64,000 nt of DNA from Anaerolineales bacterium (lineage in GTDB: Bacteria; Chloroflexota; Anaerolineae; Anaerolineales; UBA11579): NCBI GenBank assembly GCA_021463845.1, contig JAJTXV010000005.1, forward strand, positions 131,718-195,717, written 5' to 3'. The position numbers and the translations under genes were made by a program. This document shows, piece after piece, positions 52,357 through 61,428 of the stretch; the first letter of the stretch is position 1; each line of letters begins with the position of its first letter. The notes beneath the pieces are model-generated. The model was not told where the DNA came from and did not search any database. It worked only from the letters and a program-made list of their open reading frames with translations.

Positions 52357-52360
52357 TTTT

Positions 52361-52475
52361 GTCATTCCGACCGAGTAAAACGAGGGAGGAATCCTTTATG
52401 GCATTCCAAATCAAGCTGGTGTTCCTTTGCCCTAAAGGATTCCTCCTCGCGGCATACGCCGCTCGTCGGAATGAC
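52361..52475. repeat. Inverted-repeat intergenic element (GTCATTCCGAC family)
   Basis: Outer arms GTCATTCCGAC (52361-52371)/GTCGGAATGAC (52465-52475) and inner arms AGGAATCCTTTA (52387-52398)/TAAAGGATTCCT (52433-52444). The 115-bp element sits between two genes. Relatives occur at 56430-56497 (partial) and 61283-61420. Confidence 0.8.
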
Positions 52476-54413: not shown

Positions 54414-54827
54414 ATGAAGTACATGCTCATCATGCGCGACACCCAGGAGGCCTTTGAAGCCAGCCAGAAGGTTGACTTCGAAGAGATCATCAACGCCATG
54501 GGCGCCTACAACGAGTCCTTGATCAAGGCAGGCGTGCTGGCCAGCGTAGAAGGCCTGGCGCCTGCAACCGAAGGTTTCGTCGTCGATTTCGCCGGCGAGA
54601 AGCCGATCGTGACCGACGGCCCCTACGGCGAGACCCACGAGTTGTTCAACGGATTTTGGATCCTCGAAGTGTCGAGCAAAGAAGAAGCCATCGAGTGGGC
54701 CAGCCGCGCCCCGCTCGGGCCGGGCTCCAAGATGGAAGTGCGCCGTATCCCCACGGCTGAAGAGGCCTTCGCCGACTATGCTGACAATGAGTATGTCAAG
54801 AAGGGCCGCCAGAGCAAGGCAGACTAA
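54414..54827 (+). CDS. YCII/DGPF-domain protein
   Basis: 137 residues from ATG at 54414 with AAAGGAG upstream. KYMLIMRDTQEAF at the start and VTDGPYGETHELFNGFWILEV in the middle are the YCII-related DGPF signature; a dimeric ferredoxin-like fold is expected. Such genes are nearly always paired with ECF42 sigma factors, as here (20 bases to the next gene). Their biochemical function is not established; links to stress or antibiotic responses have been reported. Confidence 0.9.
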   Translation: MKYMLIMRDTQEAFEASQKVDFEEIINAMGAYNESLIKAGVLASVEGLAPATEGFVVDFAGEKPIVTDGPYGETHELFNGFWILEVSSKEEAIEWASRAPLGPGSKMEVRRIPTAEEAFADYADNEYVKKGRQSKAD

Positions 54828-54847
54828 GGCCGTCTAGCGGTGACAGC

Positions 54848-56074
54848 GTGAGCGATATCCAGCGAACGGTCGACGCGGTCTGGCGCATCGAGAGCGCCCG
54901 CATCGTAGCCACACTGGCCAAGATGACTGGCGACCTGGGCCTGGCCGAGGATCTGGCGCAAGAGGCGCTCGTTGATGCGCTGACCCAATGGCCGGAGTCA
55001 GGCGTACCGCACAATGCGGGTGCCTGGCTCACGGCCGTGGCCAAGCGCAAAGCGATCGACGACTGGCGCCGGCGGCAACGCCTTGACGAGCGCTACCGCA
55101 CCATCGCCCACAACCTGTCGGAGGCCAGCGAAGACGAGTGGCAGCCGCTCGACGATGACGTCATCCGGCTCGTGTTCACCGCCTGCCATCCTGTGCTTTC
55201 GCGTGAAGCGCAGGTCGCCCTGACGCTGCGCGTCGTCGCAGGCTTGACGACCCAAGAGATCGCTCGCCTGCTGCTGGTGCCGGTGGCGACCGTGCAGCAG
55301 CGCATCGTGCGCGCCAAAAAGACGCTCTCCGCCGCCCATGTGCCGTTTGAGGCGCCCGAGCCGGGCGAGTGGACTGCCCGGCTCGGGGCGGTGCTGGGTG
55401 TGGTGTACCTGGTCTTCACTGAGGGCTACGCGGCAACCTCGGGCGACCGCTGGATCCGCACTGAGATCGCCAACGAAGCGCTGCGGTTGGGGCGCGTGCT
55501 GGCCGGCCTGTTGCCAGGCGAGCCGGAAGTGCACGGCCTGGTGGCGCTGATGGAGTTCCAGGCTTCACGGTTCGGGGCACGGGTCGCCGGGGACGGCAGC
55601 CCGATCCTGCTCGCTGAGCAGGATCGGGCGCGGTGGGACCATGCCCAGATCAAGCGCGGCCGCGCCACGCTCGAGCGAGCGGATGCCGTTGGCCGTGGGC
55701 GCGGCAACTATGCGCTGCAGGCGGCGATCGCCGAATGTCACGCCATCGCTGCGAGCATCGAGAAGACCGATTGGGACCGCATCGTGCTGCTCTATGAGGC
55801 GCTTGGCCGGCTGGCCCCCAGCCCGGTGGTCGAGCTGAACCGGGCGGTGGCCGTCTCGATGGCCAGCGGTCCGGCGGACGCGCTGGCTATCGTCGACCGG
55901 CTGGCGTCGCATGGAGAGCTGCGCGGGTCGCACCTGTTGCCGAGCGTGCGGGGTGAGTTGCTCGCCCGGCTTGGCCGCACCGATGAGGCCCGCGCCGAGC
56001 TGATCACCGCCGCCGGCTTGGCGACCAACGAGCGCGAACGCGCCGTGCTGAGCGCCAAGGCCGCCGCGCTGTGA
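54848..56074 (+). CDS. ECF sigma factor with C-terminal TPR-like domain (ECF42 type)
   Basis: 408 residues from GTG at 54848. Region 2 (EDLAQEALVDALTQWP, RKAIDDWRRRQ) and region 4 (VALTLRVVAGLTTQEIARLLLVPVATVQQRIVRAKKTL) fill the first 180 residues. The remaining 220 residues are helical and include VELNRAVAVSMASGPADALAIVDRL, as in the ECF42 group, where this extension replaces an anti-sigma factor as the controller. It forms an operon with the YCII gene. Confidence 0.9.
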   Translation: MSDIQRTVDAVWRIESARIVATLAKMTGDLGLAEDLAQEALVDALTQWPESGVPHNAGAWLTAVAKRKAIDDWRRRQRLDERYRTIAHNLSEASEDEWQPLDDDVIRLVFTACHPVLSREAQVALTLRVVAGLTTQEIARLLLVPVATVQQRIVRAKKTLSAAHVPFEAPEPGEWTARLGAVLGVVYLVFTEGYAATSGDRWIRTEIANEALRLGRVLAGLLPGEPEVHGLVALMEFQASRFGARVAGDGSPILLAEQDRARWDHAQIKRGRATLERADAVGRGRGNYALQAAIAECHAIAASIEKTDWDRIVLLYEALGRLAPSPVVELNRAVAVSMASGPADALAIVDRLASHGELRGSHLLPSVRGELLARLGRTDEARAELITAAGLATNERERAVLSAKAAAL

Positions 56075-56203: not shown

Positions 56204-56212
56204 TGCTATAAA
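56204..56212 (+). promoter_or_regulatory. Extended -10 promoter of the candidate RNA
   Basis: TGCTATAAA (56204-56212) is an extended -10 element. It ends six bases before the first base of the closing stem of the structured region at 56218. No good -35 is seen, as is common with extended -10 promoters. Confidence 0.55.
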
Positions 56213-56217
56213 CAATC

Positions 56218-56425
56218 AACCCGCTGTGCTGCCCATTTTTACATGGGCTTGCAGCCTTGAGCTTTTGAACCAACACAAGTACTTCGGGGCTCGGCTTCCA
56301 GAACAGTTGCAACAAACCGCGTGTTCCCCCGCGGGCTTTCGGAGCGAGACCAGCTTGACCCTTTGGGTTCAAAACTCCCGCTGCACTCCTGGCTTCGCTG
56401 GGAAAGCACAGCGGGTTTATTTTTT
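56218..56425 (+). ncRNA. Candidate structured noncoding RNA of about 205 nt (possible 6S-like RNA)
   Basis: No open frame explains this block. The ends pair: AACCCGCTGTGCT (56218-56230) with AGCACAGCGGGTT (56405-56417), then TATTTTTT, giving a closing stem that doubles as terminator. Inside, GCCCAT/ATGGGC (56231-56247) and a CCTGGCTTCGCTGGG hairpin (about 56388-56402) flank a long stem: TGCAG/CTGCA and GAGCTTTTGAACC (56259-56271) with GGTTCAAAACTC (about 56366-56377). Further hairpins lie within. Size, promoter and end-to-end pairing recall 6S RNA, but no conserved 6S motif was confirmed. Confidence 0.55.
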
Positions 56426-56429
56426 AAAG

Positions 56430-56497
56430 TGTCATTCCGAGCGGGTGCTTAAGACGCCACCAGATCGCCGAACCCGCATCAGCGAGGAATCCTTATA
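56430..56497. repeat. Partial copy of the GTCATTCCGA repeat family
   Basis: GTCATTCCGAGCGGGTGC begins the segment and CAGCGAGGAATCCTTA ends it. It matches the left half of the element at 52361-52475. The rest of the stretch up to 56549 holds nothing recognisable. Confidence 0.6.
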
Positions 56498-56549: not shown

Positions 56550-57200
56550 CTACTGTCCGCTACGCTTCTCCGGCACCATATAGATCAGCGGCAGACTCAA
56601 TACCGTCACCGCATACTTCACCAGCAAATTCACCACAAAGATGCCCCACACCGTGGCCCACGGTAGCACGCCGCCGAAGGCGCCCACCGCGAAGATCACA
56701 TTGTCCACCGGCACGCTCAGGCTGTTGCTCACCAGCACCCGCGCCCATTGGTAGCGGCGCGTGATGCGGGTCACGAACAGGTGATACAGCTCCGTATCCA
56801 GCAGCTCGCTCACCACCTCAGCCGCGATCGATGCCAGCGTGATGCGCCACACCGGCGCCAGCACGGCGGCGAACTCGGCGCCCAGCCCCCAGCTGGCGTC
56901 GCTGGGGAAGTTGGCCGCCCACACCAGGTAGGCCGCCATCACCAGGTTGATGGCGCCAGCCGCCACCACCAGCGTGCGGGCCACCTGGCGGCCCAGCAGC
57001 TTGTGCACCAGATCGCGCAGGGTGAAGGTGATCGGGTAGATGAAGGTGCCCATGTCCACTGCCAGGCTGCCGAGGGCCGGCAGCGTAAGCACGCCAATCT
57101 TGACGCTGGCCACGTCCGAAAGCATCTGGGCGGCGATGTAGGCCGCGATCACCACTACAGCGGCGCGTGAGATCGTTTCAGTTACTTGCTTGTTTGCCAT
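56550..57200 (-). CDS. VUT-family transporter, probable queuosine precursor importer
   Basis: 216 residues from ATG at 57200 with AGGAGC upstream. It has about six hydrophobic segments. The conserved motifs FIYPITFTLRDLVHKLLGRQVAR, ITLASIAAEVVSELLDTELYHL and SVPVDNVIFAVGAFGG are those of the DUF165/YhhQ (QPTR) family, which imports 7-deazaguanine precursors of queuosine. Whether preQ0, preQ1 or queuine is carried cannot be told. No queuosine synthesis gene is adjacent. Confidence 0.85.
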   Translation of the reverse strand: MANKQVTETISRAAVVVIAAYIAAQMLSDVASVKIGVLTLPALGSLAVDMGTFIYPITFTLRDLVHKLLGRQVARTLVVAAGAINLVMAAYLVWAANFPSDASWGLGAEFAAVLAPVWRITLASIAAEVVSELLDTELYHLFVTRITRRYQWARVLVSNSLSVPVDNVIFAVGAFGGVLPWATVWGIFVVNLLVKYAVTVLSLPLIYMVPEKRSGQ

Positions 57201-57208
57201 CTTTGCTC

Positions 57209-57264
57209 CTAGGCGGCGAGTTCTGCGCACACAAAAAGAAAAGAGAACGCGCAGTTCTCGCCGC
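57209..57264 (-). promoter_or_regulatory. Hairpin leader before the VUT transporter, with alternative pairing
   Basis: On the reverse strand GCGGCGAG..TGCGC pairs with GCGCA..CTCGCCGC across a T-rich loop, ending at the ribosome binding site CTAGGAGC. A competing hairpin GAGAACTGCGCGTTCTC uses the same 5' bases. Such mutually exclusive folds next to the start codon are typical of regulated leaders. No known preQ1 riboswitch consensus was found. Confidence 0.45.
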
Positions 57265-61327: not shown

Positions 61328-61420
61328 CTCCCGCTATACATAGAAGACCTGCCAGCAAGGATTCTTCGCTGGTCAAGCCCCAGCGATCTGGTGCGGAGGT
61401 ATCAACCCGCTCAGGATGAC
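61283..61420. repeat. Inverted-repeat intergenic element overlapping the gene end
   Basis: The element starts GTGCATCCCGAGCGCAGCGA and ends CGCTCAGGATGAC. Inner arms AGGGATCC and AAGGATTCTTCGCTGG are imperfect. It is related to the GTCATTCCGA family at 52361-52475 and contributes the last codons of the receiver-like gene. Confidence 0.65.
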
Positions 61421-61428
61421 AGTACCAA

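What the first reader, a model, noticed from the sequence alone, without database searches (positions are those of the whole stretch)
56204..56425. Orphan structured RNA with its own promoter and terminator, possibly a divergent 6S RNA
Seen: extended -10 TGCTATAAA, then a region whose two ends are complementary (13 bp), with nested hairpins and a long internal stem, followed by TATTTTTT. There is no plausible open frame and it belongs to no neighbouring gene. Established: 6S RNAs are about 180-200 nt with end-to-end closing stems. Inference: this is a standalone regulatory RNA, either an unrecognised 6S or a new family.
Basis: partly seen in the sequence, partly recalled or inferred. Interest (0 to 1): 0.75.

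Follow-up and report, generated by a model that had tools for sequence, protein, structure and literature searches.

The report
Divergent 6S RNA that Rfam misses
This stretch encodes a 6S RNA, a widespread bacterial RNA that shuts off RNA polymerase by imitating an open promoter; it has drifted so far, including extra hairpins built into its end stem, that the standard RNA database does not recognise it.

Summary
Window 56204-56425 carries an extended -10, a 13-bp end-to-end stem, nested hairpins and a U-tract, and folds far better than shuffles (z about -4.5). Rfam finds nothing here even at E<=10, and finds no 6S anywhere in this Anaerolineales (Chloroflexota) genome.

The RNA is nonetheless this genus's 6S RNA. 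Three lines agree. (1) Position: in related genomes the Rfam-recognised 6S gene lies tail-to-tail with the same Vut_1/yhhQ transporter gene. (2) Models: a covariance model built only from 31 6S RNAs outside the genus has this RNA as its only hit in the genome; the reverse model, built from this RNA and its four close relatives, hits recognised 6S genes at their exact places. (3) Intermediates: three congeners carry 6S RNAs without the extra hairpins at the same locus. The helix beside the central bubble covaries with canonical 6S.

Rfam misses it because the genus has lost the conserved apical motif, and the closing stem of five species has gained about 14-18 nt on each strand (two hairpins, or a longer stem).

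Likely mechanism: promoter mimicry, RNA polymerase sequestration, release by pRNA synthesis. This is inferred from family membership; no transcript was tested. New variant of a known kind, modest interest.

The parts
56204..56212 (+). extended -10 element TGCTATAAA of the 6S gene's own promoter
   Evidence: TGCTATAA invariant in 8 genomes of the genus, including those with canonical-length 6S; no consensus -35
56218..56418 (+). 6S RNA gene (predicted transcript body; 5' end inferred to be about 56217-56220)
   Evidence: z -4.54; R1 hit 56250-56385, E 4.6e-4 in the window; synteny
56218..56230 (+). closing stem, 5' strand (AACCCGCUGUGCU)
   Evidence: 13 bp with 56405-56417; same CCCGCUGUGCUG / CAGCACAGCGGG in the Rfam-recognised 6S of G012
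56231..56248 (+). extra hairpin inserted in the 5' strand of the closing stem (GCCCAUUUUUACAUGGGC)
   Evidence: present in window, G001, G005, G007, G008; absent in G003, G009, G010, G012; folding alternatives
56250..56255 (+). inner closing-arm helix, 5' strand UGCAGC
   Evidence: pairs with 56380-56385; 4 of 6 pairs have two-sided compensatory changes, 99% of cells paired over 16 sequences
56262..56271 (+). P2 (downstream) helix, 5' strand CUUUUGAACC; template for pRNA if 6S-like
   Evidence: counterpart of GUUUUGAGCC in canonical 6S; 91.8% of cells paired
56272..56285 (+). 5' side of the central bubble (AACACAAGUACUUC); proposed pRNA start at C56274
   Evidence: CCAACA invariant across 16 6S sequences; start site inferred by analogy
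56286..56351 (+). apical (internal) arm, diverged; lacks the GAUGCGAUAGGC...GCCAAGGC motif of other Anaerolineales 6S RNAs
   Evidence: alignments
56352..56365 (+). 3' side of the central bubble; holds most of the UUGACCC(UUU)GGGUUCAA hairpin that competes with P2
   Evidence: predicted hairpin -5.5 kcal/mol, P2 -6.4 kcal/mol, sharing the GGUUCAA strand
56366..56375 (+). P2 helix, 3' strand GGUUCAAAAC
56380..56385 (+). inner closing-arm helix, 3' strand GCUGCA
56387..56403 (+). extra hairpin inserted in the 3' strand of the closing stem (UCCUGGCUUCGCUGGGA)
56405..56417 (+). closing stem, 3' strand (AGCACAGCGGGUU)
56416..56425 (+). U-tract TTTATTTTTT, intrinsic terminator tail
   Evidence: terminator-like site 56394-56415 followed by the T-run
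56550..57230 (-). convergent Vut_1 / yhhQ-type transporter gene: the syntenic marker of the 6S locus, not part of the RNA
   Evidence: PF02592 5.4e-35; same arrangement beside 6S in G010, G012, G015, G016, G019

Best explanation
It is the single-copy 6S RNA gene of this Anaerolineales genus. Shown here: the locus, the closing stem, the helix flanking the central bubble and the bubble's CCAACA motif are homologous to Rfam-recognised 6S RNAs of related genomes, and the promoter is shared with the insert-free 6S genes of the genus. Inferred from the family: the RNA is made from its own promoter, folds into a promoter-like rod with a central bubble, binds the housekeeping sigma RNA polymerase and blocks promoters when growth slows; on nutrient return the polymerase copies the 5' bubble and P2 strand into a short pRNA (predicted 5'-GUUGGUUCAAAAGC..., starting at C56274), which opens P2, lets the 3' strand refold into UUGACCC-UUU-GGGUUCAA, and releases the polymerase. 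In five species the closing stem gained matching insertions on both strands. They fold either as two facing hairpins (favoured in the window) or as a longer continuous stem (favoured in three relatives), and should lengthen or branch the end stem without touching the bubble.
For: Synteny: Rfam 6S in G010, G012, G015, G016 and G019 is tail-to-tail with Vut_1, as here, with a class II (aspartyl-type) tRNA synthetase gene on the other side in several. Independent model R1 (31 non-genus 6S): window 56250-56385 at 21.6 bits, E 4.6e-4 in the window, next best 1.2; its only hit with E<=1 in the whole genome, E 0.017. Intermediates in the genus: G010 53.8 bits, G009 49.3, G003 40. Reciprocal R2 (5 insert-type cores): hits at the 6S position in 15 of 34 loci at E<=10, best G003 at 9.5e-7 and, outside the genus, G016 at 1.3e-5; G003, G009, G010 also genome-wide. 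Covariation over 16 sequences, MAFFT alignment not fitted to structure: 94.5% of cells paired, score 0.255 against 0.150 shuffled (0/500) and at most 0.09 when slid. Promoter TGCTATAA shared by both forms. No other 6S candidate in G000. Mechanism of 6S, pRNA and P2: PMC8876501.
Against: Rfam RF00013 itself gives no match at E<=10, in the segment or in the genome. R1 alone is only moderately significant genome-wide (0.017). The apical arm, including the part that would hold the -35-like element, has no recognisable conserved motif. Some P2 pairs are broken in G001 and G008 (G007 has the same change). No transcript, polymerase binding or pRNA was measured.
Confidence: 0.94

Rival explanations
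1. A new structured RNA family unrelated to 6S that happens to sit at the ancestral 6S place, while 6S was lost or moved in this genus.
For: No Rfam match; multi-branched fold in the window instead of a plain rod; apparent loss of 6S is seen in congener G002.
Against: Motif, helices and promoter are shared with canonical 6S, and graded intermediates exist in the same genus at the same locus.
Confidence: 0.02
2. It descends from 6S but has changed job: the diverged apical arm and the stem hairpins now bind another partner, or core polymerase in the manner of Ms1 RNA.
For: The apical motif conserved across the order is gone in the genus, and the inserts are kept by five species.
Against: The 5' bubble motif and P2, the part that 6S biology ties to polymerase and pRNA, are the best-conserved part; no other partner is indicated.
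Confidence: 0.03
3. A decaying or chance palindromic intergenic sequence, for example a mobile repeat.
For: Interspersed TGTCATTCCGAG repeats lie directly downstream and elsewhere in the window.
Against: Single copy in the genome; about 86% identity over most or all of the length in four other species with compensatory changes against canonical 6S.
Confidence: 0.01

Closest known systems
6S / SsrS RNA, RF00013, Anaerolineales members (e.g. G012, G010, G016)
   Same: locus beside Vut_1/yhhQ, closing stem sequence, GUUUUGAACC/GGUUCAAAAC helix, CCAACA in the 5' bubble, U-rich end; within the genus also the same promoter
   Different: window RNA is about 25-40 nt longer, has paired insertions in both strands of the closing stem, lacks the GCGAUAGGC...GCCAAGGC apical motif, and does not match RF00013
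E. coli 6S RNA
   Same: rod with central bubble; a 3' bubble hairpin that competes with the downstream helix (mechanism described in PMC8876501)
   Different: hairpin here is shorter (about 7 bp with a bulge, predicted only); extra hairpins in the closing stem; pRNA start not measured
B. subtilis 6S-1 RNA
   Same: overall architecture and, if the predicted start is right, a G-initiated pRNA
   Different: no central-bubble-collapse helix was tested here; no such hairpins in the 6S-1 closing stem (from memory)
Ms1 RNA (polymerase-binding RNA named beside 6S in the abstract of PMC11077062)
   Same: a structured RNA that associates with RNA polymerase
   Different: no model match here; the core of the window RNA matches 6S

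Membership tests
6S RNA (RF00013) | match to the Rfam covariance model at its gathering score | tested here: not met
   no match at E<=10. The Rfam cut-off is a detection threshold rather than a biological trait; congener G010's orthologue scores 37.7 bits, below the 46.4 cut-off
6S RNA (RF00013) | homology to recognised 6S RNAs | tested here: met
   models R1 and R2 hit reciprocally
6S RNA (RF00013) | same gene place as 6S in relatives | tested here: met
   tail-to-tail with Vut_1
6S RNA (RF00013) | 5' and 3' ends form a closing stem, central asymmetric bubble, apical arm, about 180-200 nt | tested here: met
   folds; about 201 nt; met with the reservation that the closing stem is branched in the window's MFE
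6S RNA (RF00013) | conserved helices supported by covariation | tested here: met
   for the inner closing-arm helix; P2 is mostly invariant and adds little; the apical arm is not supported by this test
6S RNA (RF00013) | only 6S gene of its genome | tested here: met
   single R1, R2 and R3 hit in G000
6S RNA (RF00013) | binds sigma-A/70 RNA polymerase holoenzyme | not testable with these tools
   needs biochemistry
6S RNA (RF00013) | templates pRNA synthesis from the 5' bubble | not testable with these tools
   pRNA sequence predicted only
Ms1 RNA | match to a known Ms1 model | tested here: inconclusive
   no Rfam family matched at E<=10, but whether an Ms1 model is in that library was not checked

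The most novel reading that the evidence does not exclude
A 6S RNA whose closing stem can switch between a four-way junction with two facing hairpins and a longer continuous rod, so that the shape of the end stem modulates polymerase binding or RNA stability.
Probability: 0.1. Interest if true: 0.55.

Novelty: new variant of a known kind. Interest (0 to 1): 0.36.

Why it matters
It shows that an apparent absence of 6S RNA in a clade can be a limit of the search model: synteny plus locally built models recover the gene in 8 of 11 members of a genus where Rfam finds at most one, below its cut-off. The insert-bearing species, set beside insert-free congeners, form a natural series showing which part of 6S is free to change (end stem, apical arm) and which is not (the 5' bubble motif and P2), and would extend RF00013.

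Tried and rejected
Rfam at gathering and at E<=10: nothing. tRNA/tmRNA: none. Coding: the ORFs crossing the segment are broken by indels. Plasmid search: no match. A 17-mer scan of viral contigs gave 13 exact matches that I did not examine and treat as chance. G039 partial BLAST match: short (27 bases, E 0.0096), opposite strand, no 6S-like surroundings; rejected. First alignment A1 was wrong because two loci were in the opposite orientation (redone). First constrained folds failed technically (redone). 6S in G002 and G004: yhhQ present, no RNA seen beside it, only chance-level hits with R3; G006 has neither, but is 68% complete. Covariation of the 3' bubble hairpin: its register differs between window and canonical 6S, so I make no covariation claim for it. 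Literature: four searches on 6S in Chloroflexi, closing stem and structural variants and one for 6S with yhhQ turned up no title or abstract reporting this variant; open library only and few papers read, so absence is weak evidence.

Full report
Observation. It folds better than all of 200 dinucleotide shuffles (z -4.24 for the given span, -4.54 for the RNA proper). Rfam gives nothing, even at E<=10.

Homologues. The genome (G000, 2.33 Mb, 96% complete) has one copy. Among 60 relatives, four congeners carry it at about 86% identity, three of them over nearly the full length and G001 over query 1-182, and one more (G003) weakly. Named records whose contigs match in length are Anaerolineales MAGs such as ACE_CHL1 (CP075367.1), TGS_CHL6 and TGS_CHL7, so the window comes from an uncultured Anaerolineales (Chloroflexota).

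6S by Rfam is missing from this genus. RF00013 is found in 42 of 61 genomes (36 over the cut-off), in nearly every family of the order, but in only one of 11 members of the genus, below cut-off (G010, 37.7 bits). G000 has none at E<=10.

Synteny. The recognised 6S genes of G010, G012, G015, G016 and G019 lie tail-to-tail with a Vut_1 (PF02592) gene, with a class II, aspartyl-type tRNA synthetase gene on the other side in several. The window RNA is tail-to-tail with the same Vut_1 gene (56550-57230, minus strand). In the window the upstream neighbour is instead a sigma-70/DUF6596 gene.

Models. R1, built from 31 6S RNAs with no member of the genus, gives the window RNA as the only good hit in the window (21.6 bits, E 4.6e-4; the next is 1.2) and the only hit with E<=1 in G000 (0.017). 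The match spans model positions 22-156, i.e. everything inside the closing stem, because the closing stem is interrupted by the insertions. R1 scores the congeners without insertions strongly: G010 53.8, G009 49.3, G003 40 bits. R2, built only from the five insert-bearing cores, finds the 6S gene at its known position in 15 of 34 loci at E<=10, nine of them at E<0.01. E-values from these models are rough by the tool's own statement; the weight lies in the hits falling at the right places.

Shared anatomy. Canonical: CCCUGCUGUG...UGCAGC...GUUUUGAGCCAACAC...GGUUCAAAAC...GCUGCA...GGGG. Window: CCCGCUGUGCU-[hairpin]-UGCAGC...CUUUUGAACCAACAC...GGUUCAAAAC...GCUGCA-[hairpin]-AGCACAGCGGG. On a sequence-only alignment of 16 cores, the inner closing-arm helix has two-sided changes at 4 of its 6 pairs and 99% pairing; overall covariation 0.255 against 0.150 (0 of 500 shuffles) and at most 0.09 in slid versions. 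P2 is mostly invariant and so adds little covariation; several of its A-U pairs fail in G001 and G008, and G007 shares the G008 change.

The insertions. Compared with G003, G009, G010 and G012, the window and G001, G005, G007, G008 have extra sequence on both strands of the closing stem. In the window two facing hairpins are the MFE (-85.3 free; -82.8 with cross-arm pairing of the inserts forbidden; -79.3 with hairpins forbidden). In G005, G008 and G007 a long continuous stem is better by 8 to 20 kcal/mol; G001 has a longer, branched 3' insert. That both strands grew together, and that the two strands can pair with each other, suggests an end stem that was lengthened, with the facing hairpins as an alternative. 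This is inference from predicted energies.

Mechanism. By established 6S biology (PMC8876501), 6S mimics an open promoter, blocks the housekeeping holoenzyme, and is released when the enzyme copies part of it into pRNA, opening helix P2. Truncated 6S-1 RNAs with only short arms around the bubble still go through the cycle in vitro, so changes in the outer closing stem, as here, need not abolish function. In the window RNA the invariant CCAAC lies at the start of the 5' bubble; a start at C56274 would give GUUGGUUCAAAAGC (position chosen by analogy, untested). The freed GGGUUCAA can then pair with UUGACCC (-5.5 kcal/mol), as an E. coli-like release hairpin; it competes with P2 (-6.4 kcal/mol).

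Limits. No expression or binding data; apical arm structure not supported by covariation; G002 (96% complete) has the Vut_1 gene but no detectable 6S, so loss within the genus is possible.

Verdict. A divergent 6S RNA, new as a structural variant and as a database gap, not a new family. 6S has been reported before from Chloroflexi (Wehner et al. 2014 as cited in PMC7726162), so its presence in the phylum is not new.

Noticed in passing
window 56430-56445, 52360-52375, 61406-61421: Interspersed intergenic sequence TGTCATTCCGAGCGGG...AGGAATCC: three copies with up to 2 mismatches against 0.16 expected; similar repeats fill the yhhQ flank of G002. Probably a short mobile or dispersed repeat.
   Followed up: partly
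G002 C2:232485-233099 region (L057 2116-2700): A 96% complete congener keeps the Vut_1 gene but has no detectable 6S beside it or elsewhere; the place is occupied by repeats. Possible true loss of 6S.
   Followed up: partly
window 54414-56074: YCII-domain gene followed by a sigma-70/DUF6596 gene, which takes the place of the tRNA synthetase gene upstream of 6S seen in relatives; the arrangement resembles known ECF sigma plus YCII/DGPF pairs (from memory).
   Followed up: partly
alignment A5 (L014-L044): Anaerolineales 6S RNAs outside this genus mostly share a strongly conserved apical motif GAUGCGAUAGGC...GCCAAGGC and a CCUGC-GNAA-GCAGG hairpin in the 3' bubble; the genus has lost the first and reshaped the second.
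   Followed up: partly
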